Of a DNA stretch of 64,000 bases, positions 1 through 15,713 are shown piece by piece; the first letter of the stretch is position 1; each line of letters begins with the position of its first letter. The stretch spans positions 214,501 to 278,500 of the forward strand of contig NZ_CP119078.1 in the NCBI RefSeq assembly GCF_029026145.1. Direction: 5' to 3'. The notes beneath the pieces were generated by a model, which saw only the letters and a program-made list of their open reading frames with translations, did not search any database and was not told where the DNA came from. The stretch comes from Legionella cardiaca. Lineage in GTDB: Bacteria > Pseudomonadota > Gammaproteobacteria > Legionellales > Legionellaceae. A program made the position numbers and the translations under genes.

Positions 1-736
1 AATCTATTACACTACACAATGTGGTGCGTACATTGTTCATATGAAACGCGGACAAAAATGCACGATAAGAGACACTGTTGCGAATAAATCTGGGAAGACA
101 GGAGTTTTGTAAACACCAAAAACCATCAAGTCTAATTACGTGAATAGGTACTTTATTTTTTAATGCTAGCTTGGCCGCGCCATTGTAGACTCTAGGTGGT
201 TCTTGTTCTAACCTTGCAAAATTACCTTGCGGGAAAATAGCAACACAGCCTTTATTGTTAAGTATTTCACTTGCGAGTTCTAACGCGTCGGAATTAGCGG
301 AGCGTCCATTATCATCTTTAGTTGCATGGGCTTTTACCGGTATAGTTTTAAACATCTTCATAAAAGAAGCTACCCCGGGTACTGCATTAAATGAATCTGT
401 GGCAAAAAAACGAGGTGGGGTGCCTTTCATTTTTGAGGCAACCACAACGGCTTCCCAGCCAGTTCGATGGGGACCTAGTGCAAGGAGTTTACTTTCTGCA
501 TCAGGAATCTCTAAATCGCCACCTTTCGTATGCATCATGCGCGTCATACATACTAAAACACCGGCTATAATACGAGCCAAACGATTATCATAGTTAAGAC
601 GATTGTTAGATTCAGCAAACTTTACAAGCGCCATTGTCGCTACAACAACCCCAGTAAATAGGAGTAATAAAGTATAAGTACTCGATAGCGAGTCATCAGA
701 ATTGTTGAGGTCTAATTGGGAATCAAAGCCAGGCAT
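1..736 (-). CDS. PlsC-like lysophospholipid acyltransferase (3' end beyond window)
   Basis: 245 residues are visible; the gene runs off the left edge. A hydrophobic segment lies near residues 21-37. An acyltransferase block follows: GPHRTGWE (88-95) fits the H-X4-D motif, and IFPQGNF (167-173) fits the FPEGT-type phosphate-binding motif. Such enzymes acylate lysophosphatidic acid or related lysolipids at the inner membrane. The usual catalytic Asp is Glu95 here and the FPEG Glu is Gln, so either this is a divergent subfamily or activity is altered. The start is well set by AAGGAG seven bases before the ATG at 736. Its substrate cannot be read from the sequence. Confidence 0.75.
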   Translation of the reverse strand, partial: MPGFDSQLDLNNSDDSLSSTYTLLLLFTGVVVATMALVKFAESNNRLNYDNRLARIIAGVLVCMTRMMHTKGGDLEIPDAESKLLALGPHRTGWEAVVVASKMKGTPPRFFATDSFNAVPGVASFMKMFKTIPVKAHATKDDNGRSANSDALELASEILNNKGCVAIFPQGNFARLEQEPPRVYNGAAKLALKNKVPIHVIRLDGFWCLQNSCLPRFIRNSVSYRAFLSAFHMNNVRTTLCSVID

Positions 737-876
737 GTAATTAACTCCTTTAAAAGACTAAATCGATTAAGAGTTAGCCGTCCAAAATTTGCTATAGTAC
801 CTTTAAAATTGAGGTTGTCAATTAAATGCCCAAATGAAGAGTTAAGCGATTCCCTAAGAAAAAAGCTGGCTTTACA

Positions 877-904
877 GTAGGTTAGGTCATTTTGACCTAA
901 CAAA
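877..904 (+). repeat. REP-like palindrome, variant copy 1
   Basis: The element reads GTAG, then a 9-base arm (GTTAGGTCA), TTT, the complementary arm (TGACCTAAC) and AAA. It has the same layout as the copies at 1363, 2003 and 19357, but both arms carry one compensatory change, so the hairpin is kept. GTAG is the 5' tetranucleotide typical of REP elements served by RAYT transposases, one of which is encoded at 1464-1991. Confidence 0.75.
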
Positions 905-963
905 TCATCTATACTTCAATACATGATCCTCTTTTAAGATATATCGCTGACAAGGAGATAGTT

Positions 964-1359
964 ATGAGTATATCTAAGTTGGTTTATCCATTTTTGTCTA
1001 TTTTTATCGTTGTTATTAGTGTTGCCTCTACAAACTGTTTCGCCGATCGTGGTTTCCGTGGGCCAGGTGGTGTTGGTGGCGTTGGTGGTGTTGGTGGCGT
1101 TGGTGGCGTTGGCGGCGTTGGTGGCGTTGGCGGTGTTGGTGGCGTTGGCGGTGTTGGTGGCGTAGGTGGTGTTGGTGGCGTAGGCGGTGTCGGTGGCGTA
1201 GGCGGTGTCGGTGGGGTGTATCATTATAATAATGAAAACGTTGATCATTACTATCCAAACAATGGTTGGGTTGCTCCGACAGTTATTCTCAATGGTTCAA
1301 GCAATTGCCAAACATGTGATTCTAATGGCAACTGCATCCAAAATCAGGGCTGCAATTAA
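964..1359 (+). CDS. Secreted protein with 17 tandem Gly-Gly-Val repeats
   Basis: 131 aa. It begins with a basic-hydrophobic signal peptide (about residues 1-28, ending near CFADR), so export is expected. Residues 35-85 are 17 uninterrupted GGV units encoded by 1066-1218. The C-terminus is His/Tyr/Asn-rich and then Cys-rich (CQTCDSNGNC, with a last Cys next to the end). AAGGAG lies seven bases before the ATG. The 9-bp coding unit would let copy number change by slippage without breaking the frame. No function is recognised; Gly-rich secreted repeats suggest a structural or surface role, but this is a guess. It sits between two REP-like palindromes. Confidence 0.75.
   Translation: MSISKLVYPFLSIFIVVISVASTNCFADRGFRGPGGVGGVGGVGGVGGVGGVGGVGGVGGVGGVGGVGGVGGVGGVGGVGGVGGVYHYNNENVDHYYPNNGWVAPTVILNGSSNCQTCDSNGNCIQNQGCN
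1066..1218 (+). repeat. Coding minisatellite, 17 x 9 bp (GGV)
   Basis: Seventeen in-frame 9-bp units of the form GGN-GGN-GTN, with synonymous variation (GTT/GTC/GTA/GTG) increasing towards the 3' end. Third-position divergence suggests the array is not brand new, while the central units are close enough for slippage. Confidence 0.9.
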
Positions 1360-1362
1360 ATA

Positions 1363-1390
1363 GTAGGTTGGGTCATTTTGACCCAACAAA
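1363..1390 (+). repeat. REP-like palindrome copy 2 (left flank of RAYT)
   Basis: GTAG, 9-base arm GTTGGGTCA, TTT, arm TGACCCAAC, AAA. It is a perfect 9-bp hairpin with the GTAG tetranucleotide on its 5' side. It lies 73 bp before the RAYT start codon and faces the inverted copy at 2003-2030. Confidence 0.88.
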
Positions 1391-1463
1391 ATTAAAATTG
1401 ATTGCAAGAACAATCCAAAAACAATATAAGGATAGCTTAAGGAAATATAAAGCAGTCTAAATC

Positions 1464-1991
1464 ATGGAATATCGAAGAGTAATCATACCTGGAGCGGTTT
1501 ATTTCTTTACATTGAATTTAAAAAATAGAAATAGTGAATTACTAGTTAAAGAGATTGATAAGTTACGAATAGCCTTTCAACAAATAAAAAGAAAATACCC
1601 TTTTAAAATTAAAGGCATTGTCATTTTGCCCGAACACCTTCATATGATGATCCGTCTCCCAGCAGGAGATAGTAATTACTCACTTAGAATACGATTGATT
1701 AAAAGTGTTTTTACCCATCAACTTCATATTAATGAATCGATTGGTCCATCAAGAAGGAAACAAGGTGAACGAGGAATTTGGCAGCGACGATTTTGGGAGC
1801 ATCTCATTCGCGATGAAAAAGATTATGAACATCATTTAAATTACATTCACTTTAATCCCGTAAAGCATGGTTATGTAAAACGTGCTTCAGATTGGCCTTA
1901 TTCAAGTATACATCGCGACATTAAAGCAGGACTTTTAGAGGCAAATTGGGCATGTGTACATGATTTTAGCGAGAATTTATTTGGAGAGTGA
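1464..1991 (+). CDS. REP-associated tyrosine transposase (RAYT, Y1/IS200-like)
   Basis: 175 aa, full length for the family. The HUH-type metal motif is HLH at 58-60 (PEHLHMM), and the presumed nucleophile Tyr127 lies in NYIHFNPVKHG, the hallmark of TnpA-REP proteins. A basic stretch at 97-110 and the WPYSS motif near 144-148 are also typical. RAYTs nick single-stranded DNA at REP hairpins and are thought to spread them; they are usually single-copy domesticated proteins. The gene is bracketed by two inverted GTAG palindromes (1363-1390 and 2003-2030), the expected arrangement of a RAYT with its own REPs. No strong Shine-Dalgarno is seen before the ATG. Confidence 0.9.
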   Translation: MEYRRVIIPGAVYFFTLNLKNRNSELLVKEIDKLRIAFQQIKRKYPFKIKGIVILPEHLHMMIRLPAGDSNYSLRIRLIKSVFTHQLHINESIGPSRRKQGERGIWQRRFWEHLIRDEKDYEHHLNYIHFNPVKHGYVKRASDWPYSSIHRDIKAGLLEANWACVHDFSENLFGE

Positions 1992-2002
1992 GGGGCGTGG
2001 AA

Positions 2003-2030
2003 TTTGTTGGGTCAAAATGACCCAACCTAC
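2003..2030 (-). repeat. REP-like palindrome copy 3 (right flank of RAYT)
   Basis: Exact inverse complement of the copy at 1363-1390, starting 11 bases after the RAYT stop codon. Together the two form an inverted pair around the gene. Confidence 0.88.
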
Positions 2031-2321
2031 TTGCTGGTCCGATATTTTATACAAGACTGGATCAATTAATATTTCAAACTCTTCTGTATTAACAATAAGA
2101 TATCTTATAGATTTAGATTTTGTGTCCCAATGCAATGCAGTAGTAATTTCCATGATAATCTCAAAATTCCATTTATTATATAAATATAGTCTATAAATAT
2201 GCCTAAAGGTCTATTATTGGTAATAGTGGTTAAATGGCGGTCTATCCTATGGGATCTATAATGAGGATTTTATTCAAACTTTAAAGTTGAGTTTTTCATA
2301 TTTCTAAGCTTTAATTTTACT

Positions 2322-2456
2322 TGGGTGGTACAAATTAAATTTCCATTGTCTATCTGCGATGGTTATTCTTAAGATTACTATTATCTATTACTCGCTCATT
2401 GCTACTAGTTATTATGGGTGACGCTAAATTATAAAAGAAAAATTATTACCACCCAT
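2322..2456 (+). ncRNA. Candidate retron msr-msd RNA upstream of the RT
   Basis: The roughly 450 bp between the REP palindrome and the RT start holds no convincing ORF but does hold structure. TGGGTGGTA (2322-2330) is complementary to TACCACCCA (2447-2455), a possible a1/a2 pair. Inside it are CCATTG/CGATGG (stem of six with one G-U, about 2343-2362) and a near-palindrome around CTTAAG. ATGGGTG (2414-2420) can pair alternatively with CACCCAT (2450-2456). Retron RNAs normally lie directly upstream of the RT. The exact boundaries and the branching G are not determined here. Confidence 0.4.
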
Positions 2457-2475
2457 TAATTTTCGGGCGATCTAT

Positions 2476-4098
2476 ATGGACAAAATTTCATTTAAAGACT
2501 GCCTTACGGTTAAAGATTTATCCAGATTTTTGGGTATGGATTACTCTCAGCTATCCTCCATGATTTATCCAAGTACAAGCTCTTTGTATATAACTTTTAT
2601 TATTCCTAAAAAAAGCGGATCTGACAGAATAATAGATGCTCCTAAAGCAAAACTTAAGTCTATCCAGAGAGCTTTGGTTAAAGAGTTTAATCAAATCTAT
2701 TTGCCTAGAATTAATGCGCACGGATTTATTTGTAAAAGAAGCATTATTACAAATGCTAAACATCACATAAATAAAAAATATGTTTTCAATTTGGATTTAA
2801 AAGATTTTTTCCCCTCTATCCATTTTGGGAGGGTAAGAAATCTATTTATGAGTAATTTATTTTCATTTACTTATGAGGTGGCTACTGTTCTAGCTCATAT
2901 TTGTTGCCATAATGGAAGATTGCCTCAAGGAGCGCCCACGTCGCCTGTTTTAACTAATATGATTGCTTTCAAATTAGATAATGAGTTACTGAAATTATCC
3001 ATTGAAAATAAATGCTCTTTTACTAGGTACGTAGATGATCTAACTTTTTCATTTTCCTGTCAGAAAAATAAATTACCCCCTGATATCATCTGCTTGAATG
3101 GGGATGAGAATATTACTCCAGGGAATAAGTTGCAAAAGATAATAGAAAAAAATGGCTTTGAAATTAATTTGAGTAAATGTCGATTGCATCATGTTACACA
3201 AAGTCAAAAAGTTACGGGTATAGTTGTAAATAATAAAACTAATGTACAACGTGGTTTTATTAATAAAACTCGATCTATGCTTTATGCTTGGGAAAGATTT
3301 GGTTTAGAGGCAGGAGCCAAAGAATATATCACCAGTTATTTAGAAAAAGACTATGGAACATACGATAAAAAAAGAATTCTTTCTGAACCATCAGCATATT
3401 TTAATTTAGTCATAAAAGGTCGAATTAACTATATTGGCATGGTAAGAGGCAATCAAGATAGTATCTATAAAAAGCTGCTTTATAAGTACAGTGTTCTTAA
3501 TGGCGAGCCCGATGAAAATCTGAAAAAAACTTCAAATGATATTCTCGCAGATAGTATATTCATTGTTGAGCATAGTATAGAAGGTACTCAGGGAACAGCT
3601 TTTCTAGTCGACAAATTAGGCTTGGTTACTGTTTGGCATGTTGTAGAGGGAGTAACGAGTGAAACCAGTTGTTTTTTAGATTTTTTTAGATTTTATGATA
3701 GTGACATTAAGAGAAAGGCGGTTCTACATAATTCTTCTAAAAGCAAAGATTTGGCAATTTTTAAGTTTAGCAACAATTTTCAAGGCATAGTCCCGCTTAA
3801 GTTGGGGGATAGTGCTAAATTAAAACAAGGTGATGAAATCAAATTAATAGGTTTTCCAAGTTACAATATAGGTGATCACTATCATTGTAATATGGGAAAG
3901 ATTACTCAAAGGAAAAAAGTTCTTGGCATAAATGTGTGGTTAATCGATATTCCGATAACTCATGGAATCAGTGGTGGACCTGTATTAAATAGTAATGATG
4001 AAGTTATTGGAATCGCAACGGTAGGATCTGAAAAGCATGATAGCACAACTATAAGCCATGGCTTTATTCCTATAGCAGATGCCTTAAAATTATTGTGA
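2476..4098 (+). CDS. Retron reverse transcriptase fused to trypsin-like protease
   Basis: 540 aa in two parts. Residues 1-340 are a retron-type RT: NAKHH (93-97) and VTG (246-248) match the two retron-specific signatures, DLKDFFPS (107-114) carries the first catalytic Asp, QGAPTSP (151-157) is motif B', and YVDD (185-188) is the active site. Residues 355-540 are a chymotrypsin-fold protease with a complete triad by motif: His388 (TVWHVV), Asp425 (KDLAIF), Ser499 (GISGGPV). Retrons are anti-phage systems in which the RT/msDNA complex restrains an effector; fused proteases are a known effector type. The gene is visibly AT-rich and ends 71 bp before an att repeat. No separate effector gene is nearby. 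The Shine-Dalgarno is weak, and the ATG is chosen because it precedes the conserved N-terminal region. Confidence 0.9.
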   Translation: MDKISFKDCLTVKDLSRFLGMDYSQLSSMIYPSTSSLYITFIIPKKSGSDRIIDAPKAKLKSIQRALVKEFNQIYLPRINAHGFICKRSIITNAKHHINKKYVFNLDLKDFFPSIHFGRVRNLFMSNLFSFTYEVATVLAHICCHNGRLPQGAPTSPVLTNMIAFKLDNELLKLSIENKCSFTRYVDDLTFSFSCQKNKLPPDIICLNGDENITPGNKLQKIIEKNGFEINLSKCRLHHVTQSQKVTGIVVNNKTNVQRGFINKTRSMLYAWERFGLEAGAKEYITSYLEKDYGTYDKKRILSEPSAYFNLVIKGRINYIGMVRGNQDSIYKKLLYKYSVLNGEPDENLKKTSNDILADSIFIVEHSIEGTQGTAFLVDKLGLVTVWHVVEGVTSETSCFLDFFRFYDSDIKRKAVLHNSSKSKDLAIFKFSNNFQGIVPLKLGDSAKLKQGDEIKLIGFPSYNIGDHYHCNMGKITQRKKVLGINVWLIDIPITHGISGGPVLNSNDEVIGIATVGSEKHDSTTISHGFIPIADALKLL

Positions 4099-4121
4099 AT
4101 AGTTGTCTATTGTTATTTCTG

Positions 4122-4142
4122 AGTGCCCCATCAGTGCCCCTC
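4122..4142 (+). repeat. Tandem 10-mers, candidate integrase arm sites of a left-hand element
   Basis: AGTGCCCCAT and AGTGCCCCTC are separated by one base (11-bp pitch). The layout and distance to the att repeat (27 bp) copy those of GTCTACATTG/GTCTACATGA at 13500-13520 (25 bp from the right att repeat). This suggests arm-type binding sites of a different integrase that put a second element at this site. Confidence 0.55.
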
Positions 4143-4169
4143 AGAGGTCTTCAACTTTTTCGAACTACA

Positions 4170-4235
4170 CGTAACTACTTGATTTTATTGGTGGGCCCAC
4201 TAGGACTTGAACCTAGGACCAACGGATTATGAGTC
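4170..4235 (+). repeat. Left att repeat (tRNA-Ile2 3' half duplicate)
   Basis: 66 bp identical to 13546-13611. It contains the tRNA 3' half from the anticodon stem to CCA (4189-4235 on the minus strand) plus 19 bp of 3' flank. The identity ends inside the anticodon stem, so this copy is not a functional tRNA; it is the duplicated attachment site. Confidence 0.92.
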
Positions 4236-4354
4236 TGTAAAATAGGGGTTTTAGCGCGTTTTATCAAATTTTAAATTCTTTCAAAAACCTTTTAAAATCA
4301 ACGTTTATAAGCCATAATTTGCCATATTGAAATTTATTTAGTTTTAAATAAAGT

Positions 4355-4375
4355 GTCTACATGGCGTCTACATGG
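4355..4375 (+). repeat. Tandem 10-mers (GTCTACATGG), candidate arm sites at island left end
   Basis: GTCTACATGG occurs twice with one base between. The same pair, slightly diverged and in the same orientation, is at 13500-13520 just inside the other end of the island. Paired short direct repeats near both ends and next to the integrase gene fit arm-type sites of a tyrosine recombinase. Confidence 0.7.
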
Positions 4376-4392
4376 AATTTTAGGGGTAAATT

Positions 4393-5622
4393 ATGGCAGA
4401 AGCTGAAAAGGGTATTAAATTAACCAAAACCATCGTTGATAAACTCGAACATATCGCTGGAAAAACTCAAACTTTTTATCGTGATAATGATTTAAAGGGC
4501 TTTGCTTTAAGAATTACTTCCGGTGGTGTCAAAAGCTTTATCGTAGAAACCAGAATCAACGGCAAAGTAAAAAGAGTCACTATAGGAAAATACGGTAATT
4601 TAACGGTTGAAGAAGCCAGAAAGCAAGCCAAGAGTCTGTTGGGTAGTGTGGCCAGAGGTGATGATCCGATAGCGGAGAAGAAAACTAAAAAAGTTCATGC
4701 CATGACCTTACAGCAGGTATTGAATGACTACCTCAAAGCAAGAAAAGATTTAAAGCCACGCACCTTAAACGATTATCAATGTGTGCTGCATGAAGTCGTG
4801 CCTGACTGGCTTGATAAACCCTTGGTGAATATTACACGAGAGATGATTGCCAAACGACATAGCAAGCATGGTCAGGCAAATAGTAAAGCTCGCGCTAATA
4901 ATGCCATGAGGGTATTAAGAGCTATTTTTAATTACGCCATGTATGAATATCAAGACGGCAATGGTCATCCAATTATCACCATTAACCCAGTCAAATACCT
5001 CTCGCATACCCGTGCATGGTATCGAGTAGATCGAAAACAAACAGTCATCAAACCCCATCAACTAGCTGACTGGTATAAAGCAGTTATTGTATTGGTGGAG
5101 ACTGATAACTATCGCAACGCCTTATTGTGGCATGATTATTTTTTATTGCTCTTATTCACCGGCATGCGAAAAATGGAGGCAGCCTCTTTGCGCTGGGAAG
5201 ATATTGATCTCAAATCCAAAACCATCACTCTGCAAGATACCAAAAACCACGAAATCCACACCTTGCCTATGTCTGACTTTGTTTATGAGTTGATGGAACG
5301 CAGAAGCCGGAATAAAACCACTGAATTTGTTTTCCCAGCTGAAAGTAAAACGGGTTATATCTATGAGCCTAAAAAGGCGGTGAATAGGGTGGTGGAATTA
5401 TCAGGTGTTCCATTTACTTTGCATGATCTGAGAAGAACATTCGCTACTGTTGCTGATAGCCTTGATTTACCTGCTTATGCTTTGAAGCGATTACTCAACC
5501 ATAAAATGAACAATGATGTTACAGCGGGGTACATCATGAAAGACGTTGAACGGTTGAGGAAACCCATGCAACAAGTAACCAATTTTATACTTGAGCATAT
5601 GATGGAGACGGCTGAGTTATGA
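4393..5622 (+). CDS. Tyrosine site-specific integrase
   Basis: 409 aa, the usual length of P4-type phage/island integrases. An N-terminal DUF4102-like arm-binding domain (about 5-90, GFALRIT and VTIGKYG motifs) is followed by a SAM-like core-binding region (about 105-200) and the catalytic domain. The catalytic residues are Arg259 (TGMRKMEA), His344 and Arg347 (HDLRR), His370 and Tyr380 (AGYIMK). It should recombine the 66-bp tRNA-derived sites flanking the island. The gene lies just inside the left att repeat, at the end opposite the intact tRNA. The candidate arm sites at 4355-4375 overlap its upstream region, so self-regulation is plausible. Confidence 0.95.
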   Translation: MAEAEKGIKLTKTIVDKLEHIAGKTQTFYRDNDLKGFALRITSGGVKSFIVETRINGKVKRVTIGKYGNLTVEEARKQAKSLLGSVARGDDPIAEKKTKKVHAMTLQQVLNDYLKARKDLKPRTLNDYQCVLHEVVPDWLDKPLVNITREMIAKRHSKHGQANSKARANNAMRVLRAIFNYAMYEYQDGNGHPIITINPVKYLSHTRAWYRVDRKQTVIKPHQLADWYKAVIVLVETDNYRNALLWHDYFLLLLFTGMRKMEAASLRWEDIDLKSKTITLQDTKNHEIHTLPMSDFVYELMERRSRNKTTEFVFPAESKTGYIYEPKKAVNRVVELSGVPFTLHDLRRTFATVADSLDLPAYALKRLLNHKMNNDVTAGYIMKDVERLRKPMQQVTNFILEHMMETAEL

Positions 5623-5732
5623 ATATTAATGAACTAATAGAGCGCTGGACTTTGGGTATGAGGATCATTTTCGAACTTAATTTTGTCACGTTTTATATTA
5701 TAATTCGTGACAAAAAAGTAATAAAATTATGA
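5619..5732 (+). CDS. Small ORF overlapping integrase stop
   Basis: A 37-codon ORF whose ATG overlaps the integrase stop (ATGA). The product starts MNINELIERW. Translational coupling is possible, but the 3' half runs through the 10-bp hairpin at 5684-5718, so it may be only a chance frame or a truncated remnant. No family recognised. Confidence 0.25.
   Translation: MNINELIERWTLGMRIIFELNFVTFYIIIRDKKVIKL
5684..5718. terminator. Hairpin between convergent integrase and ATPase genes
   Basis: TTTTGTCACG and CGTGACAAAA form a perfect 10-bp stem around a 15-base AT-rich loop, followed by A/T runs on both sides. It lies between two converging genes and suits a bidirectional terminator. Confidence 0.6.
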
Positions 5733-5742
5733 CAGCGATTAT

Positions 5743-6969
5743 TTAATCAAGAAGCGAGAAGGGTATTGCCCAAAGATTATCCCCAAATGACAAACATTTA
5801 TCTCCACTATATAGAACTATCCCGCTTACCCAATTTTTATCAGCTATATTAGCCAGCTTTCTCAAACCACGGAAATCTTGATTAAGAATCGTTTGACTTG
5901 CTTTAACTTCAATACCAATAATCTTGCGTGCATGATTTTCAATAATAAAATCCACTTCCACTTGGTCTTTGTCACGATAGTAATAAATATTCCATGGCTC
6001 ATCTGTTAGAGTACACATTTTTAATAATTCGCTATACACCCAAGTTTCTAGTAAGGCCCCAAAAGATGATCTATCCGTTTCGATGCTCTCGGGTGAAATT
6101 CTATTTAGACAAGCTAGAAGACCACTATCAATAAAATGAATTTTTGGTGATTTAACGATTCTGTTTAGGTTATTATCGTGCCAAGGTTTTAATTGATCTA
6201 CTAAGAATAGCGTTTCAAGCAAGCTAACATATTTTTGTGCCGTTTTAGTATCTAAATTTAATTGACCACCAATCTGAGTAAAATTGGTCAGTTTACCTGA
6301 CTGTTGAGCCAGTACTTCGAGTAAACGAGGCATTTCAACTAATTTTTCAATTGATGAGATATCTTTAACATCGCGCTCTACTATTGCTTTTATATATGAT
6401 CTAGCCCAAGCACTTCGTCTTTCGAAGGTTGGTCTCGTTAACATTTCTGGATATCCTCCAGTAAGAGCTTGCGAAATAACATCATAATGCTCTGAATGTA
6501 TGGTTTTTGTAGGCCAAGACTGATTTTGAGCATACTTTATAAAATGATTTTCTCGGCGTTGAATTTCAGCTAAAGACAGTGGGAATAGGGTTAATATTTC
6601 CATACGACCCGCCAGGCTATCTCCAACTTGAGGTAATGCGAGTAGATTAGCTGATCCAGTTAATAAAAAACGACCGGGCTGTCTATTTTGGTCAATTGAT
6701 AGTTTTATCGCACGCAGTAATTCTGGTGCTCGTTGAATTTCATCGATGATTGCTTTGTCAATTCTATTAACAAAACCAATGGGATCTTGTTTTGCTGCAT
6801 TGAGTATATTGTCATCATCTAAAGTATAGTAAGGCAATGAGGGTGAGTATTCTTTGACTAAAGTTGTCTTTCCTGATTGCCGGGGCCCGTTAATTAAAAC
6901 AACTGGTGTATCTTTCATGGCAATTTCCATTCGACTTTTAAGTTGTCTTGGAAAATTATTGTTGTTCAT
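5743..6969 (-). CDS. AAA ATPase with C-terminal DUF4143 (AAA_14)
   Basis: 408 aa from the ATG at 6969; a TTG two codons upstream has better spacing to AGGA and may be the real start. The Walker A is GPRQSGKT (28-35), the Walker B IIDE (74-77), and the sensor region RFLLTGSANL is conserved. The C-terminal half is DUF4143, with EVDFIIE and IGIEVKAS resembling the E/D-X-K core of restriction-type nucleases. The family is widespread in mobile DNA, and its biological role is not settled. It converges with the integrase. Five 22-bp repeats lie directly upstream, in the place of a promoter or operator. Confidence 0.88.
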   Translation of the reverse strand: MNNNNFPRQLKSRMEIAMKDTPVVLINGPRQSGKTTLVKEYSPSLPYYTLDDDNILNAAKQDPIGFVNRIDKAIIDEIQRAPELLRAIKLSIDQNRQPGRFLLTGSANLLALPQVGDSLAGRMEILTLFPLSLAEIQRRENHFIKYAQNQSWPTKTIHSEHYDVISQALTGGYPEMLTRPTFERRSAWARSYIKAIVERDVKDISSIEKLVEMPRLLEVLAQQSGKLTNFTQIGGQLNLDTKTAQKYVSLLETLFLVDQLKPWHDNNLNRIVKSPKIHFIDSGLLACLNRISPESIETDRSSFGALLETWVYSELLKMCTLTDEPWNIYYYRDKDQVEVDFIIENHARKIIGIEVKASQTILNQDFRGLRKLANIADKNWVSGIVLYSGDKCLSFGDNLWAIPFSLLD

Positions 6970-6992
6970 TTTCAATGAGGTATCCTAAATTT

Positions 6993-7102
6993 CGTCTAAT
7001 ATGGATTATGATTCCGTCCATTATGGATTATAGGTTCGTCCAAAATGGATTATAAGTCCGTCTAATATGGATTATATGTTCGTCCAAAATGGATTGCAAA
7101 CA
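6993..7102. repeat. Five tandem 22-bp repeats upstream of the DUF4143 ATPase
   Basis: Five units of exactly 22 bp start at 6993, 7015, 7037, 7059 and 7081. The shared core is CGTC-(C/T)-A-x-x-ATGGATT, with variable last bases; the fifth unit is the most diverged at its 3' side. There are no spacers, so this is not CRISPR. Two turns of B-DNA per unit would put bound proteins on the same face, as in iterons or an operator array. No other intergenic tandem array of this kind was seen in the island. Confidence 0.9.
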
Positions 7103-7510
7103 CATTTAGTTCAATTAAAAAATACTTGGGGCGAAAGGGACAAGTGGGGCATCCGCGTCATTACTGGGCTAGACACGTCCCCATCTTATTTTGGAACCAT
7201 GGGACGTATGGGACACCTTCATTTTTAAAGAGATTTTCAATATCAATCAATATCATTTGATAACACCTCTTTTAATTCGAGCTTTTTTGCTTGACAGAGT
7301 TTTAGCAAACCAGCAATACTCTGGTCGAGCTTGAAGTTAAAGCCAGACCTGCTAACCATTCCTAATGGGCAGGAAAGAGTAGCAAGCATTGCTCAACTGT
7401 TTAATACAGTGTGCTGTGTTTGTTAAATAATATTAATCAAAGGATTGCATAATGAAAAATACATTAAAAAGTCAGCTTTATGCTGAATGTATTATGAAAC
7501 GGAGGTATTC
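7103..7510. other. Non-coding stretch before the AlpA-like gene
   Basis: No gene of useful length. A possible promoter is TTGACA (about 7293) with a weak -10 (CAATAC) 17 bases on. A 31-codon ORF begins at the ATG at 7452 (MKNTLKSQLY) and overlaps the start of the HTH gene out of frame; whether it is translated is unclear. Confidence 0.4.
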
Positions 7511-7765
7511 ATGTCTTCACCAAAAACATCTCGGTTACACCTATTAAATGAATTTGAGTTAGCCCCCCAATCAGCTCTCTTTAATCAACACACCATTGCC
7601 GCAGTTCTTAGTTGTTCTACTCACTTGCTTGAACGTAATCGTTGGGCTGGTGGCGGTGTCCCCTACATCAAAATTGGTCGTAAAGTTCTATATCGCAAAA
7701 GCGATGTACTCGAATATATTCAACAGAAAATTTATAGCTCAACAAGTCAACAAAGCTATTCATAG
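7511..7765 (+). CDS. AlpA-like helix-turn-helix DNA-binding protein
   Basis: 84 aa. The start is the ATG at 7511, set by GGAGG at 7501-7505. Residues about 20-70 form a MerR-like winged HTH of the excisionase/AlpA type: FNQHTIAAVLSCS, then ERNRWAGGGVPYIKIGRKVLYRKSDVLEYI. Proteins of this type activate the integrase or act as excision factors in P4-like islands. It precedes the DUF927 gene by 79 bp and is probably co-transcribed with it. Confidence 0.8.
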   Translation: MSSPKTSRLHLLNEFELAPQSALFNQHTIAAVLSCSTHLLERNRWAGGGVPYIKIGRKVLYRKSDVLEYIQQKIYSSTSQQSYS

Positions 7766-7844
7766 CACACATCAACTTGTCTGGAAGTAAATATCAGCAA
7801 AGGTTGCCTTGTGTCGTCTTTGCAAGCATATGTTGGAGAATATT

Positions 7845-9611
7845 ATGAGCAACAATCAAATCATCGCCTTTGATGTAAAAGTCAAACAAGCCGACCACCA
7901 ATCGCAAATAACCTACTGTGACTATGCCGGTGGCAAGTTTCAGATAAACAATAAAGGCGTATTTTATTTGGGTAGGGATAAAGATAGCAATGAACTTGCA
8001 CCACGGTGGATCTGTTCGCCACTGTACGTAACTGCAAAAACGCGTGATGCGCATAATGGCGAATGGGGTCGCTTATTAGAATGGCAGGATGATGATGGTA
8101 TAACACACCAATGGGCAATGCCACTGGCCTTATTGCAAGGGGATGCCTCAGAAGTACGGCGTGAGTTAGTTCGATTAGGTTTAACCATTTCGCCAGGCCA
8201 TCATGCACGGGATTTATTAACATCTTACGTGCAAGTCTTTCCAGTAGAAGCGCGAGCACGTTGTGTAGATAAGCTGGGTTGGCATAACAAAGTATTTGTT
8301 ACACCTAAGCAAGCTATTGGCCAATCGGAAGAAAAAATCGTTTTTCAAAATACCAATGCCATTGAATCATCACTATCAACCTCAGGGAGTGCTGAAGAAT
8401 GGAAAAACTCTATAGGCAAGCTTGCCATAGGTAATTCAAGACTGGTGTTTGCTATTGCCAGTGCCTTTGCTCCAACCATTGCAAGACTTGCTGGTGAAGA
8501 CTCTGGTGGTTTTCATTTTCGGGGTGCTTCATCTTCTGGAAAAAGCACGGCACTGAATGTGGCTGCCTCGGTATGGGGTAAGCCAAATTCATATATACGC
8601 TTATGGCGTGCCACTGCTAATGGCTTAGAGGGATTGGCTGCAATGCATAACGATGGCTTATTGATTCTTGATGAGCTCAGCCAGCTTGATCCTAGCGAGG
8701 CGGGTGAAGCTGCTTATCTGCTTGCAAATGGGCAAGGTAAAAATAGAGCTTCAAAGTTAGGTACGATCAAAGCAACGAATAAGTGGGCTTTGATATTTCT
8801 ATCAGCAGGTGAAGAGTCTCTTGCTACCTTAATGGCACGAATTGGCAGGCGTTGTAATGCAGGGCAAGAAATTCGCTTAGCGGATATTGAAGCTGACGCG
8901 GGTTGCGGCATGGGATTATTTGAAACCTTACATCAACAACTAAGCCCAGCTAGCCTTGCGCTCACGCTTAAGAACTATTCAAGCAAGTATTATGGAGCAG
9001 TGGGGGAAGCATGGCTACAGTTTGTGGTCACAAACCAAGATGTTCTTGCTCGGTTGCTTAACCAAGGGATTCAGCAGTTTGTCGATACGGTTATCGATTC
9101 GGATGTAACCGGTCAAGTCATCCGCGTTGCCAGACGTTTTGCTTTGGTGGGCGCGGCGGGTGAGCTTGCTACCCAATTTAATCTGACTGGTTGGCAGAAA
9201 GGTGAATCCTACGCCGCGGCAAAGAAATGCTTTAAAGCATGGTTGCTTGCTTTTGGTGATAAGGGTAATCGAGAAGACCGTGCCATTAAAGCGCAGGTAA
9301 GGGCATTCTTTGAGCTGCATGGTGCGAGCCGGTTTGATAACGCTAACGCTCCCAATAATGAGAAAGTAGTTAATCGAGCAGGCTTTTATAGAACTGATGA
9401 TCAAGGTTTTCGCCGCTTTATGGTATTGACTGAAGTGTATAAAAATGAGCTTTGTCAGGGCTTTGATCAACGCACAGTAACCAAAATATTATTAGAGTGT
9501 GGTTGGCTGGTTCCAACCAATGATGGTAAGGCATCCCACAAGCCAAGAATCAAAGGGGTAGGTACGCCACGGTTGTATGTCTTCTCTAATAAAGTACTGG
9601 ATGCTGAATAG
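7845..9611 (+). CDS. DUF927 P-loop protein (island replication type)
   Basis: 588 aa from the ATG at 7845, set by GGAG six bases upstream. A TTG-initiated 12-residue extension is less likely. The N-terminal region (about 1-190) resembles DUF927. Walker A is GASSSGKS (227-234), Walker B LLILDEL with Asp276-Glu277. DUF927 proteins are predicted helicase/primase-like ATPases common in integrative islands, where they stand in the position of the P4 alpha replication protein. The following intergenic region is rich in inverted repeats and could be its origin. Replication activity is inferred from family context only. Confidence 0.85.
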   Translation: MSNNQIIAFDVKVKQADHQSQITYCDYAGGKFQINNKGVFYLGRDKDSNELAPRWICSPLYVTAKTRDAHNGEWGRLLEWQDDDGITHQWAMPLALLQGDASEVRRELVRLGLTISPGHHARDLLTSYVQVFPVEARARCVDKLGWHNKVFVTPKQAIGQSEEKIVFQNTNAIESSLSTSGSAEEWKNSIGKLAIGNSRLVFAIASAFAPTIARLAGEDSGGFHFRGASSSGKSTALNVAASVWGKPNSYIRLWRATANGLEGLAAMHNDGLLILDELSQLDPSEAGEAAYLLANGQGKNRASKLGTIKATNKWALIFLSAGEESLATLMARIGRRCNAGQEIRLADIEADAGCGMGLFETLHQQLSPASLALTLKNYSSKYYGAVGEAWLQFVVTNQDVLARLLNQGIQQFVDTVIDSDVTGQVIRVARRFALVGAAGELATQFNLTGWQKGESYAAAKKCFKAWLLAFGDKGNREDRAIKAQVRAFFELHGASRFDNANAPNNEKVVNRAGFYRTDDQGFRRFMVLTEVYKNELCQGFDQRTVTKILLECGWLVPTNDGKASHKPRIKGVGTPRLYVFSNKVLDAE

Positions 9612-9643
9612 TTAATTATTTGGGCACTTTTTGGGAGGATTTT

Positions 9644-9712
9644 ATGTTTTATACATTGAGCACCGCAGGTGCGAATAAGCTAAGTGAATTAGGTAACCTG
9701 CTTGCAGGTTAG
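9644..9712 (+). CDS. Possible 22-codon ORF ending in a hairpin
   Basis: The ATG at 9644 follows a good Shine-Dalgarno (GGGAGG) and encodes 22 residues (MFYTLSTAGANK...). Its last codons and stop lie in the strong hairpin at 9684-9722. It could be a leader peptide or an accidental ORF. Confidence 0.25.
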   Translation: MFYTLSTAGANKLSELGNLLAG

Positions 9713-9722
9713 CTAACTTCAC
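9684..9722. repeat. Strong hairpin after the DUF927 gene
   Basis: AACCTG/CAGGTT closes a CTTG loop. After a two-base internal loop the stem continues with GTGAATTAG against CTAACTTCAC (one bulge). There is no T-run after it, so a classical terminator is less likely than an RNA processing or origin structure. Confidence 0.6.
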
Positions 9723-10057
9723 CTATCTTGCCCTGCATTTTGAAATTTATTTTGGAATCGTATTTTGGTAATTATTCGTAATTGTTCGTTATGTAACGAT
9801 TAGTAACGAAAATAATCATGAATAAACGGAAATAAATAATAAATTACCGAAAATTACCAAAAAGGGCTTAGTCAGAGACATAAAAGGTCGAAAATAAATA
9901 AAAATAAACGTAACTACTCCCCCTACGCCCCGCTGCTTGTCAGCGGGGTCCAGAGTTCTTAATTAGAGCGCATGGATCCCGCTGACAAGCAGCGGGACGT
10001 AGGTAGTGAGAAACTAAACTCAACGGATTGGATAACCAGCAATATGGAGACAATGCC
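9723..10057. other. Non-coding, repeat-rich region; candidate island origin or oriT
   Basis: AT-rich DNA with short inverted and repeated motifs: TTCGTTA/TAACGAA around 9787-9810, with repeated GTAACGA-type words. It is followed by the near-perfect long palindrome at 9922-10003. It lies between a replication-type gene and a TraK-like gene, the usual place of oriV or oriT. No gene seen. Confidence 0.35.
9922..10003. repeat. Long inverted repeat, 31-bp arms
   Basis: Arms 9922-9952 and 9973-10003 are complementary with two mismatches and a 20-base loop. The outer six bases are CCTACG/CGTAGG. From memory, similar GC-rich palindromes with CCTACG ends are dispersed in Legionella genomes, so this may be a MITE-like or REP-like insertion rather than part of the island backbone. 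Confidence 0.85.
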
Positions 10058-10324
10058 ATGAAAAAATCCTTAACAGAAAATTTAATGGCTTCTAAACAGA
10101 GCCCACAAAGAACAAACACTAGAAAAAATAAAGTGGCATTTCTGGCTATGCGCCAAGACATTTCCGAAGCCTTGGAAAAAGGGTGGTCGATTACAATCAT
10201 TTGGGAAACACTTAGGGATGAGGGGAGTTTTTCAGCAACGTATAATACATTCCGGTTATATGTATTGAAATACTTGAATAGTCAAAAGTCCGGGTATTCA
10301 CAAAAGGATGTCAACGTTCAGTAA
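10058..10324 (+). CDS. TraK-like small protein (conjugation accessory family)
   Basis: 88 aa from the ATG at 10058, preceded by GGAGA. The central block VAFLAMRQDISEALEKGW followed by TIIWETLRDEG and a Tyr-Asn-Thr-Phe motif matches the TraK family of IncP-type plasmids, whose members bind oriT DNA near their own gene. A palindrome-rich region sits directly upstream. No relaxase is present in the island, so the likely role would be mobilization by a helper, or an independent DNA-binding role. Assignment is by remembered motif similarity. Confidence 0.55.
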   Translation: MKKSLTENLMASKQSPQRTNTRKNKVAFLAMRQDISEALEKGWSITIIWETLRDEGSFSATYNTFRLYVLKYLNSQKSGYSQKDVNVQ

Positions 10325-10805
10325 CAGAAGAGACTGTTCATAAATCAGGACAAAGAGAAAAGCCGACCACCATAACTTCATTTAGCTTTAATTCGTCACC
10401 TAATTTAAAGGAATTATTATGATGATGAAATGCATTTTTATTGATTGATATAGTATCCAATAAGTCCCACATGCCCCACCTTCATGGCGAAGGGGGGGGA
10501 GTGATAAAACCTAGCAGTAATACGCCTGCCCCAGATGTCCCCTTTGTCCCCGAGATATTGGCTAACATGTTTATGTGAATTTATTTTCTTGATGATAAAT
10601 GTTAATCAATCGGGTCTGAGCATATTGATTTAGTTATCTTTTTGATAATGAACTAAGTACTTTAGGGGCAAGACTTGAAATTTGAATTATAAATACACAA
10701 AAGGAGATATTCGCTTGAAAACTCACAATTCAAGGTCTATCACCGTTATCCCTGTGCTATATTTATTTTAGAAATTAATGAATTATAAGATAAGGATCAT
10801 CTTAT
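10325..10805. other. Non-coding stretch before the envelope cassette
   Basis: No convincing gene. It contains a hairpin at about 10474-10500 (CCTTC/GAAGG with flanking C4/G4 tracts), an 18-codon ORF from a TTG at 10715 behind AAGGAG, and an inverted repeat around the ribosome binding site of the next gene. Confidence 0.4.
10785..10805 (+). promoter_or_regulatory. RNA hairpin holding the ribosome binding site of the next gene
   Basis: ATAAGAT (10785-10791) and ATCTTAT (10799-10805) are exact complements. The seven-base loop AAGGATC contains the Shine-Dalgarno, and the start codon follows at once. The weak AT-rich stem could act as a simple translational or temperature-sensitive control element. 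Confidence 0.5.
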
Positions 10806-11174
10806 ATGGCGGCCGATCCTCAGGAATTATGGATATATACAGAGTTTTTAAATGTTTATAGGGATTATGTATTATATCTTCAACAAATGGGCATTCTTTT
10901 AATCACAGCAATCTCTGTTATCTTTTTTAAGAACCGTAAAAATCAGAATTGTCCTTTTTACCTTACTATATACACCGCGTTCTTACTAGCAATAGTAAAT
11001 TTATTTGTGGGGTTGTGTGTGTATAGCAATATCCTAGGTTTGATTTTAGATGCCTCCCAGAAGTTACCAGATTTAACCTCCCTGAAATTTGGTGTGTATT
11101 GGCAGTTTGGACTTGAGATAACCTCATTAATTGTTTTTGTAGTATCGATATTTTTTATCAAAAAGGAAAAGTAA
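10806..11174 (+). CDS. Small integral membrane protein of unknown function
   Basis: 122 aa with three clear hydrophobic segments (about 28-42, 52-75 and 98-117) and a basic tail (FFIKKEK). No family recognised. The stop codon is one base from the start of the next gene, so the two form an operon. Strong AT-richness relative to the core genome points to acquired cargo. Confidence 0.65.
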   Translation: MAADPQELWIYTEFLNVYRDYVLYLQQMGILLITAISVIFFKNRKNQNCPFYLTIYTAFLLAIVNLFVGLCVYSNILGLILDASQKLPDLTSLKFGVYWQFGLEITSLIVFVVSIFFIKKEK

Positions 11175-11175
11175 A

Positions 11176-11688
11176 GTGAGACGCAAACTAGCATCAATTA
11201 TGGGTATATTTTTCTTTATTCCATTTGCTTATAGCTTCGGATTGGATGATGTGTATGTTCAAGAAAAAAATAAAATTATAAGTTTTAAACAGGCTGTTAC
11301 ATCAAAGCAGGGCTATGTTGGAAAAAAGAATAATCATTATTTTTTATCAATAGGTAGTTATTCTACAACATTTGATTTAAACGGAAATATTAACTCTTTT
11401 GATTCTGCAACAAATATCCTCTTTCCAAAACGGGTTTTTATGGAACTAACTCTGATGAATCTATATCCAAATGCACAAATTTATTTTGATCAAGAGCCAA
11501 TAGGAAATACTGATCAAGATGGTAACGCAAGAAAAGTTCTTTATCTTGAGAAAATCGGTTCATACTCTATAAAAATTAAAAAACCTAAAAACAAAGTTGC
11601 TCATCAAGTAGTGAAAATTGAAGATACGTGTAAAGTTGAATGCAGGGATGTGAAACCTATGACCTGTAACATATTTACCGAAAATTAA
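11176..11688 (+). CDS. Exported protein with PEGA-like region
   Basis: 170 aa with a GTG start at 11176, preceded by AGGA and one base after the previous stop. Signal peptide about 1-20 (MRRKLASIMGIFFFIPFAYS). Residues about 98-146 (AQIYFDQEPIGNTDQDGNA to HQVVKI) look like a PEGA-type beta domain, as found in surface and periplasmic proteins. Three Cys near the C-terminus (TCKVEC, then MTC) may form disulfides. With the upstream membrane protein it forms an envelope cassette of unknown role; defence or toxin/immunity are possible but unsupported. Confidence 0.6.
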   Translation: MRRKLASIMGIFFFIPFAYSFGLDDVYVQEKNKIISFKQAVTSKQGYVGKKNNHYFLSIGSYSTTFDLNGNINSFDSATNILFPKRVFMELTLMNLYPNAQIYFDQEPIGNTDQDGNARKVLYLEKIGSYSIKIKKPKNKVAHQVVKIEDTCKVECRDVKPMTCNIFTEN

Positions 11689-11764
11689 CTTACCAGCATA
11701 ACTTGATGGATAAAATCACAATCAAGGCTTCACTCTAATTTTATTAGAGAGATTATTATTTATA

Positions 11765-12238
11765 CTAAAAAACCCAATTTTCTTTAACCATAAATTGTTC
11801 TAAATTGTTACATGGAATAGAGTAGTATTCACATATAGCGGGAATTTTAGTGCTATTGGGTTTATATCTTTCTTCAGTAATAATAGTAAGGTTATTAATT
11901 TTAGCTTTTGCAACAAGAAAGGGATCTGCACATAATCCGCCTGTTAATTGCTTAGTTTTTTCTATCATTCCTTGGAAATGTCCATTTTTTTCTTTAAATA
12001 ACTCCATCATAAAATTTGCTTCAATGCCGCTTGGCTTATGAAAAATGTCTTTATTGTCGTTTGTCCAAGTTATTGCCGCTGTATTTTTATCCAAGCCTTG
12101 AAGCTCTTTAAATACTTCGATAACAGAAGCAACCTTTTGAGTTTTTATTAATTCGTCAAATTTAGCCCATAAGCTAGGAAATCTACTAGGGTAGTATTTG
12201 AAAAGCAAACTAAATGTTGAAGTATCAAAAATATACAA
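11765..12238 (-). CDS. DUF4411 PIN-like protein, predicted toxin
   Basis: 157 aa. The PIN-type first Asp is at the very start (MYIFDTSTF), which supports the TTG start at 12238; no in-frame ATG upstream would fit. Further acidic positions (VFKEL near 44, CADPFLVAKA near 109) match the PIN core that binds metal for RNase activity. It starts four bases after the stop of the Xre-ImmA gene, with AAAGG upstream, so the pair is an operon. DUF4411 is commonly paired with HTH-COG2856 proteins in predicted type II toxin-antitoxin modules. Toxic activity is inference. Confidence 0.8.
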   Translation of the reverse strand: MYIFDTSTFSLLFKYYPSRFPSLWAKFDELIKTQKVASVIEVFKELQGLDKNTAAITWTNDNKDIFHKPSGIEANFMMELFKEKNGHFQGMIEKTKQLTGGLCADPFLVAKAKINNLTIITEERYKPNSTKIPAICEYYSIPCNNLEQFMVKENWVF

Positions 12239-12242
12239 TTTA

Positions 12243-13385
12243 TTATACCTTTGCTAAGTAATATTCTTCCATTGTAATGAATGACTTAGGCTTTACATTT
12301 GCATAGTCAGCGGCTTTTTCAATGCTTATTACTCCTTGATGGTAATTTTCCAGAATTTTTGAAAAATAATTTTTACCTAAATACGATAATTGGGTGTAAT
12401 AATAATGACCACTAGATTCTTTTGAATTTCTTTTGGCAATGTCATCATTCCAGGATTGTATTTTAGATTTATACTCTTCTTTGCTAATCAGTTGTAATGA
12501 GAGTAATTTTCTCCATATAACCTCTGTACTTACTTTATAATGTCCAGCGAGAGCAATTACTTCATTATCAGTAAGAATACTGTTTTGTAATTTAGTAATA
12601 AAACTATCATTTGGAATAAGAAAGTTTGCTGCAAATGAATTACATTTTACTTCAATATTTGTGGGATCAGAAAACTCTAGATTCCAGAACTCTCCAGCAA
12701 AGACATCTAAGTAGTTTTCTTTATAAATTAAGTGAGCAACCTCATGAAATAGGGTGAAAATTTGTCTATTTTTAGACATAGAGCTATTAAGAAAAATAAT
12801 TGGAAACATTTGATCATAAATGCAAAAGCCTGATACTCTACTATCTTTAAATGCTTCTTTAAAAACATATACTCCATGTTCTGCTAAAACATTTCTCCAT
12901 TCTTCTAGTGCTTGCTCTGAATTTTTCCATTTAGCTTGTTCTTCTATAGTAACACCCAATATAGCTCTTGCTTTTTTGGCTATATCGGACGTTGAGTTAT
13001 TTGATTTAAAATTAAGCCAGTTCACTTTTTCTTTCTGCTCTTCATATTCACTTTGAAATAGCTCTTTCAAGTAAATTTGAAACGCTGTCGCTTTTCTGAA
13101 TAGATATCGTATATGTGGAGAAAGGGTATGAATATCTTCTTGAGATAAGGCACGAAAGGATTTTTCTACATCTTTTTCTTCAGGGGGGGATGGAAAAAAG
13201 AAAATTGCTAATGGGCGATTATAATGTATAGATAACTTTTCTAATTGGCTATAAGTTGGATAACTTACCCCATTTTCCCATTCTTCATGCTTAGAGTTTT
13301 TTTGGCATTCCTCTTCAAGCGTATATCCAGCTTTTTCTCTAGCCCATTTTAAAATGGATGGATTAATAGGAATCTGCTCTGCCAT
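12243..13385 (-). CDS. Xre-family regulator with ImmA/IrrE metallopeptidase domain
   Basis: 380 aa from the ATG at 13385; a GTG one codon upstream is equally possible. N-terminal Xre HTH (about 8-60, WAREKAGYTLEEEC), then an ImmA/IrrE zinc peptidase domain with HEVAH (214-218). Proteins of this kind repress their own operon and cleave or sequester partner regulators. With the DUF4411 gene downstream it makes a predicted toxin-antitoxin or stress module at the island end next to the tRNA. Confidence 0.88.
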   Translation of the reverse strand: MAEQIPINPSILKWAREKAGYTLEEECQKNSKHEEWENGVSYPTYSQLEKLSIHYNRPLAIFFFPSPPEEKDVEKSFRALSQEDIHTLSPHIRYLFRKATAFQIYLKELFQSEYEEQKEKVNWLNFKSNNSTSDIAKKARAILGVTIEEQAKWKNSEQALEEWRNVLAEHGVYVFKEAFKDSRVSGFCIYDQMFPIIFLNSSMSKNRQIFTLFHEVAHLIYKENYLDVFAGEFWNLEFSDPTNIEVKCNSFAANFLIPNDSFITKLQNSILTDNEVIALAGHYKVSTEVIWRKLLSLQLISKEEYKSKIQSWNDDIAKRNSKESSGHYYYTQLSYLGKNYFSKILENYHQGVISIEKAADYANVKPKSFITMEEYYLAKV

Positions 13386-13499
13386 CACAATACCTAATTT
13401 AACATATTAATAATTATTGTAGTACAAGTTGGAAAGTGAAACTACCAATGTTCCTTTACAACTCGGTCAATATATATTTATCAGTCGAAGTGATTTACT

Positions 13500-13520
13500 G
13501 TCTACATTGCGTCTACATGA
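13500..13520 (+). repeat. Tandem 10-mers, candidate arm sites at island right end
   Basis: GTCTACATTG and GTCTACATGA with one base between, matching the pair at 4355-4375 in spacing and orientation. It lies 25 bp from the right att repeat. Confidence 0.7.
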
Positions 13521-13545
13521 CTTTTTCGAACTTTCTAAAAACTAC

Positions 13546-13641
<96 letters not shown>

Positions 13642-13719
13642 GGAGGAGGTGTCATTGTAATAGTTCTAAGGACTTAATACCACTACAATTTTTAAATTTT
13701 TTGCTAAATTCAATCATAA

Positions 13720-13752
13720 TTGGGATAAGGTTTTGTTTATTCCTTATCCCAA
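13720..13752 (-). terminator. Hairpin after rpoD
   Basis: TTGGGATAAGG and CCTTATCCCAA form a perfect 11-bp stem with an 11-base loop just past the rpoD stop. The downstream T-run on the minus strand is poor, so termination efficiency is uncertain. Confidence 0.6.
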
Positions 13753-13763
13753 AAATTGCATAG

Positions 13764-15626: not shown

Positions 15627-15713
15627 AGTCGTCATAGGCATTGGTGAGGTTAAGGGCCACAAAAAGGTCTTGATTATAAACCCGCAATGGCAAACATGCC
15701 AGTATATTTTGCG

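What the first reader, a model, noticed from the sequence alone, without database searches (positions are those of the whole stretch)
2322..4098. Retron with a trypsin-like protease fused to the reverse transcriptase
The 540-aa protein has both retron RT signatures (NAKHH 93-97, VTG 246-248), YVDD, and a C-terminal domain with a complete His388/Asp425/Ser499 triad. No separate effector gene is adjacent, so RT and effector appear to be one chain. Retrons are anti-phage tripartite systems; a protease effector implies activation by phage sensing and cleavage of an unknown substrate. The gene is at the edge of an integrated element, a usual place for defence cargo. How the protease is held off and what it cuts are open.
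Basis: partly seen in the sequence, partly recalled or inferred. Interest (0 to 1): 0.82.

Follow-up and report, generated by a model that had tools for sequence, protein, structure and literature searches.

The report
Type XI retron: reverse transcriptase-protease fusion
This is a complete-looking bacterial retron, a small element of an anti-virus kind whose DNA-making enzyme is fused to a protein-cutting enzyme; the kind is already catalogued, but what it cuts and how it is switched on is still open.

Summary
Window 2476-4098 encodes 540 aa: a retron reverse transcriptase (RT) fused to an HtrA-like trypsin domain with H388/D425/S499; the triad is invariant in 47 of 47 aligned fusions. It is not a new kind: PADLOC's RT-Protease_XI models match end to end (E 1.6e-183) and match 47 of 47 A3 rows, and a 2025 paper mentions retron RTs fused to Toprim, protease or TIR (PMC12405507, passages). 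I add the RNA part: a conserved ncRNA at 2322-2455, with a1 2322-2330, a2 2447-2455 and a compensated hairpin at 2343-2362. A model built without the window finds it as the one strong hit in the genome (53.0 bits, rough E 5e-5; next 22.5 bits). No neighbour gene family spans more than 3 of 56 fusion loci. One correction: the retron lies just outside the att-bounded element (4190-13609). Most likely mechanism, by analogy with Retron-Eco2: RT plus msDNA hold the protease off until phage attack. Defence, msDNA, trigger and substrate were not tested here.

The parts
2322..2330 (+). a1 arm of the retron ncRNA (TGGGTGGTA)
   Evidence: perfect 9-bp complement of a2; own a1/a2 pairing summed over 12 loci is 126.7 against at most 101.0 in 10,000 permutations of partners
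2343..2362 (+). msr hairpin (CCATTG / CGATGG, loop TCTATCTG)
   Evidence: 6 predicted pairs, 4 of them with a kept change on both sides among 12 loci
2363..2432 (+). presumed msd (template of the RT-DNA), variable in sequence
   Evidence: lies between the msr hairpin and the conserved A-rich motif; a hairpin is predicted in the window; extent inferred
2433..2442 (+). conserved A-rich motif before a2 (window AAAAGAAAAA), presumed start of the template
   Evidence: alignment A2; role inferred
2447..2455 (+). a2 arm of the retron ncRNA (TACCACCCA)
2316..2460 (+). whole ncRNA as placed by a covariance model built without the window
   Evidence: 53.0 bits; rough E 9.2e-07 in the window and 5.0e-5 in the whole genome, next best 22.5 bits
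2476..4098 (+). RT-protease fusion gene, 540 aa (retron type XI)
   Evidence: PADLOC RT-Protease_XI, residues 5-538, E 1.6e-183
2602..3225 (+). reverse transcriptase domain, residues 43-250
   Evidence: Pfam RVT_1 E 1e-21; retron Ec67 chain E 7.9e-51 over residues 11-276
3592..4014 (+). trypsin-like protease domain, residues 373-513; His388, Asp425, Ser499
   Evidence: Pfam Trypsin_2 E 2.5e-19; HtrA chains, best E 3.9e-13; triad 47 of 47
4190..4233 (+). distal att repeat of the neighbouring integrated element (copy of the tRNA-Met 3' end); a boundary, not part of the retron
   Evidence: 44 of 44 bases identical to 13566-13609; none in 100 shuffles

Best explanation
It is a complete-looking type XI retron: one ncRNA (2322-2455) and one gene for an RT fused to an HtrA-like serine protease. 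Shown here: intact gene, invariant catalytic residues, conserved and co-varying ncRNA, no recurrent neighbour gene. Inferred: the RT copies the msd part of the ncRNA into RNA-linked DNA (msDNA) and stays bound to it; this complex keeps the C-terminal protease inactive, by oligomer geometry or by blocking its cleft, as proposed for the RT-Toprim fusion Retron-Eco2. A phage function that cuts, modifies or displaces the msDNA releases the protease, which then cleaves one or more host or phage proteins and stops the infection, most likely at the cost of the cell. The protease has no free N-terminus, and the residue before its serine is Ile (Met in 20 and Asn in 17 of 47 rows), so the classic zymogen salt bridge (recalled) is not available; an HtrA-like order-disorder switch is more likely (inference).
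For: End-to-end RT-Protease_XI match, also in 47 of 47 A3 rows at E <= 1e-100; Pfam RVT_1 and Trypsin_2 in 47 of 47; triad and RT motifs; nearest solved RT is Ec67/Eco2, itself an RT-effector fusion; ncRNA alignment, compensatory pairs, partner-permutation test and leave-one-out model; ncRNA found in all 13 rows of the window's RT clade (12 of the 13, window included, had built that model, and the 13th, L090, has an RT identical to L005's); no neighbour family in more than 3 of 56 loci. Eco2: self-inhibited complex with msDNA, isolated effector domain toxic while full length is not, denB escape mutants point to a phage nuclease as trigger though its direct test failed for toxicity (PMC12405507, passages).
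Against: I found no experiment on a type XI retron: searches gave 0 papers, one, which only mentions the fusion; of the 54 papers only 20 were listed, and two key papers are not held. RNAalifold predicted the hairpin but not a1/a2, which are out of register in A2. The window's 9-bp stem is not outstanding in a blind single-sequence search: another repeat scored 10.2 and 8 of 20 shuffles reached that. In the permutation test own partners rank first in 10 of 12 (one tied), second and third in two Pseudomonas loci, and the stretches had been cut around stems already located. In 6 of 12 ncRNAs, the window's among them, no unpaired G lies between a1 and the conserved core (read by eye), so the priming G cannot be named. 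The protease label needs 9 changes on the RT tree, so one origin of type XI is not shown. The window's end branch is long (0.74; four nearest sisters 0.23-0.30), which could mean relaxed selection.
Confidence: 0.6

Rival explanations
1. It is a DRT/UG-type defence RT (protein-primed or template-free) that happens to carry a protease, not a retron.
For: Trypsin-like proteases are fused to DRT systems in print (PMC12799240, passages); weak Drt2 and Drt3a hits (E 1.9e-6 and 2.3e-7, far under their cut-offs).
Against: Retron models win by far (609 bits); NAxxH and VTG conserved; ncRNA with a1/a2 directly upstream.
Confidence: 0.03
2. The protease works as half of a nuclease-protease pair, as in Avs, Lamassu and Hachiman: it cleaves and activates a pro-nuclease.
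For: That mechanism is reported for other defence systems (PMC12799240, start of abstract and passages); the Avs1b protease profile matches weakly (E 2.9e-4, 18.1 bits, residues 370-478).
Against: The paper says the nuclease is a separate, typically upstream gene. Beside 56 type XI loci the only families in 3 loci are a glutathione-S-transferase-like one (named by L004's annotation), the phage replication nickase (L088, L091 by PHROGs) and a response-regulator-like one (judged by eye).
Confidence: 0.1
3. The protease is regulatory: it cuts its own chain or the RT to release or reset the complex, and another activity kills.
For: The fusion allows cis cleavage; the stretch after residue 325 up to the protease is poorly conserved in A1 (5 sequences).
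Against: No second effector domain or recurrent gene found.
Confidence: 0.12
4. The retron in this genome is a decaying copy without function.
For: Only 1 of 22 genomes of the genus, its own, has it at E <= 1e-100; long end branch.
Against: Gene intact, every catalytic residue kept, ncRNA kept with a perfect 9-bp a1/a2 stem.
Confidence: 0.12

Closest known systems
Retron type XI (PADLOC RT-Protease_XI, PDLC02959/PDLC02960)
   Same: Same two domains in one gene over the whole length; all 47 A3 rows match at E <= 1e-100
   Different: No difference found against the models; the paper that defined the type is not held, so its text was not compared. New here: host record and an annotated ncRNA for this clade
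Retron-Eco2 / Ec67 (PADLOC type I-C, RT-Toprim fusion)
   Same: Closest solved RT (E 7.9e-51 over residues 11-276); RT and effector in one chain
   Different: Effector is a Toprim RNase, here a serine protease; structure and trigger were studied for Eco2
Retron type XII (RT-TIR fusion)
   Same: Related RT (at most 391 bits, up to residue 381)
   Different: C-terminal TIR domain instead of protease
Nuclease-protease pairs of Avs, Lamassu, Hachiman and DRT systems
   Same: Trypsin-like protease fused to a defence core protein
   Different: No recurrent partner gene found beside the type XI loci

Membership tests
Retron | RT with retron motifs NAxxH (region X) and VTG (region Y) and active-site YxDD | tested here: met
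Retron | msr-msd ncRNA next to the RT, closed by inverted repeats a1/a2 | tested here: met
   comparative evidence, not outstanding in the window alone
Retron | Priming guanosine that takes the 2'-5' branch | tested here: inconclusive
   no unpaired G between a1 and the core in 6 of 12 ncRNAs, window included (by eye)
Retron | Makes branched msDNA | not testable with these tools
   needs bench work
Retron type XI | Single gene, RT fused to a C-terminal protease | tested here: met
   PADLOC RT-Protease_XI 609.3 bits, residues 5-538
Retron type XI | Complete serine-protease triad | tested here: met
   H388, D425, S499 invariant in 47 of 47; activity not tested
Trypsin-like (chymotrypsin) fold | Fold of the C-terminal half | tested here: inconclusive
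   sequence match to solved HtrA proteases, best E 3.9e-13, triad aligned; no model could be made
Anti-phage defence system | Protects against phage | not testable with these tools
   inferred from family; some homologues lie beside phage genes: replication nickase (L088, L091), portal protein (L089)

The most novel reading that the evidence does not exclude
A retron that needs no nuclease and no second gene: msDNA loss directly frees a tethered HtrA-like protease, which stops infection by cutting a small set of host or phage proteins. That would be a proteolytic effector mode for retrons distinct from the pro-nuclease route of Avs, Lamassu and Hachiman.
Probability: 0.5. Interest if true: 0.6.

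Novelty: new member of a known kind. Interest (0 to 1): 0.32.

Why it matters
The Eco2 paper counts about a third of retron RTs as fused to effectors; the protease class is named, but I found no study of it in the searches cited. A mapped ncRNA for a clade that includes marine and soil bacteria gives bench workers single-locus units for asking what a retron protease cuts and what holds it off.

Tried and rejected
Rejected: that the retron is inside the neighbouring integrated element (att repeats exclude it; no third tRNA fragment at up to 3 mismatches over 16 bases). Rejected: a conserved partner gene (ORFs of 80 aa or more within 4 kb where sequence is held, blastp E <= 1e-5 over 60 aa; near-copies among the 56 loci were not removed). 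Rejected: a known Rfam family for the ncRNA (bases 1-16000; the only match there, MH_s25 on the other strand, 23.7 bits, is far below its cut-off of 114).

Led nowhere or only part of the way: a blind inverted-repeat search on single sequences beats all 20 block shuffles in 27 of 56 loci, not in the window. Model R1 hits 14 of 64 sources strongly, the 13 rows of the window's clade and L134, a contig end like L010; L021 is weak (E 0.85); the other type XI groups are not reached. Group-wise alignments of 34 of the 55 other loci show a closed stem round a hairpin in two alphaproteobacterial sets, a Pseudomonas set, a beta-like set and a small viral set (3 rows, one of them aligned poorly), and no consensus in six Bacillota rows, though single-sequence stems there are strong. 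Promoter scan: no candidate stands out before the ncRNA. Literature: searches gave 0 papers, one; PMC12548924 has no mention of protease or type XI, PMC13405049 only protease inhibitors; PMC7736814 and 10.1038/s41587-024-02384-z are not held and are not cited for content.

Full report
What is there. The ORF at 2476-4098 (+) is intact and 540 aa long. Pfam finds RVT_1 at residues 43-250 and Trypsin_2 at 373-513. Against solved structures the RT half is nearest to retron Ec67/Eco2 (E 7.9e-51, residues 11-276) and the C-terminal half to HtrA-type serine proteases (best E 3.9e-13), with His388, Asp425 and Ser499 aligned to the H, D and S of the HtrA chain. PADLOC's two RT-Protease_XI models match over residues 5-539 at about 609 bits; the next class, RT-TIR_XII, ends by residue 381 with at most 391 bits.

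Relatives. All 47 rows match RT-Protease_XI at E <= 1e-100 and carry RVT_1 and Trypsin_2. H388, D425, S499, D107, Y185, D187 and D188 are 47 of 47; the residue before the serine is Met in 20, Asn in 17 and Ile in the window alone. On a quick RT tree of 122 rows the window falls in a clade of 13 rows, all with protease (SH-aLRT 96); over the whole tree the protease label needs 9 changes, so a single origin is not shown.

The ncRNA. In 12 loci, the window included, the stretch upstream of the gene aligns (A2): a1, the motif AATTTAACTTTC (window AAATTAAATTTC), a 6-bp hairpin with a TATCTG-like loop, a variable stretch, the motif AAGAGAAAA (window AAGAAAAA), a2, then the start codon. RNAalifold predicts the hairpin, 4 of its 6 pairs with a kept change on both sides, but not a1/a2. 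Because a1 and a2 differ in length and sequence I tested them by permuting partners: own pairs sum to 126.7, the best of 10,000 permutations 101.0; own ranks first in 10 of 12 (one tied), second and third in two Pseudomonas loci. The stretches compared had been cut round stems found before. A model built from the 11 other loci finds the window's ncRNA at 53.0 bits, rough E 5.0e-5 for the whole genome, the next hit being 22.5 bits. The window RNA folds better than shuffles (z -3.64, 1 of 200 as good). Against: a blind search for inverted repeats does not single out this stem, and model R1 does not find the RNA in the other type XI groups, although alignments of 34 other loci show a similar layout in most groups with other sequences, and no consensus in Bacillota. 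In 6 of 12 RNAs no unpaired G stands between a1 and the core (by eye), so I cannot point to the priming G.

Surroundings. Upstream lies a REP-associated transposase (1464-1991; NF047646, E 3e-57) between inverted REP units. Downstream, 44 bases of a tRNA-Met 3' end (gene 13565-13641) stand at 4190-4233 and 13566-13609, with an integrase at 4393-5622: the integrated element is 4190-13609 and the retron is outside it. The tRNA with the sigma-70-like ORF beyond it (13764-15662, recognised by eye) matches in 22 of 22 genomes of the genus, the own genome included, one of them (G016) only weakly. G007 has a 94% identical integrase in the same place and other genes where the retron sits. So the retron looks like cargo of a tRNA-Met hotspot. 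At E <= 1e-100 it is in 1 of 22 genomes of the genus, the own one. Relatives were met beside phage genes (L088, L091, L089), in plasmid records and in genome contigs not typed further.

How it most likely works. Retron-Eco2 is the best guide: RT-Toprim and msDNA form a self-inhibited trimer, the isolated effector domain is toxic while full length is not, and escape mutants in denB suggest msDNA damage as the trigger, although DenB's toxicity prevented the direct test (PMC12405507, passages only). The same paper states that about 32.8% of 3395 retron and retron-like RTs are fused to effectors such as Toprim, protease and TIR. By analogy the type XI protease is held inactive by the RT-msDNA complex and freed by a phage nuclease or a similar attack; its substrate is unknown. 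The pro-nuclease route reported for Avs and others (PMC12799240, start of abstract and passages) is less likely because no partner gene recurs: the largest neighbour families within 4 kb span 3 of 56 loci.

Verdict. What is added here is the RNA half and the boundaries. Host: probably Legionella, inferred from a megablast match of the neighbouring element (4188-6167, not the retron) to a Legionella adelaidensis plasmid and the genome size; no tool named it.

Noticed in passing
1362-2031: REP-associated tyrosine transposase gene (1464-1991) between inverted REP palindromes (1362-1390, 2003-2031) that recur in this genome and in several congeners.
   Followed up: partly
4190-13609: Integrated element at tRNA-Met with 44-nt att repeats, integrase and a DUF927 primase-like gene; a related element sits at the same tRNA in G007 with other cargo.
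   Followed up: partly
9625-9733: traJ-II RNA (RF01760) on the minus strand, 53.5 bits, above its cut-off of 40, inside the element.
   Followed up: no
11765-13388: Gene pair on the minus strand: a regulator with a metalloprotease-like region (phrog_2439, phrog_87, RmrA-like) and a small protein of an unknown phage family (phrog_11126); may be a toxin-antitoxin-type pair (inference).
   Followed up: no
5743-6975: AAA_14/DUF4143 ATPase matching PADLOC candidate family PDC-S01 (E 5.7e-165).
   Followed up: no
964-1359: Small gene with a long glycine-glycine-valine repeat; an orthologue stands in the same region of G007.
   Followed up: no
L168 (G057): Type XI homologue with a stop codon inside the frame while its ncRNA aligns well.
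   Followed up: no
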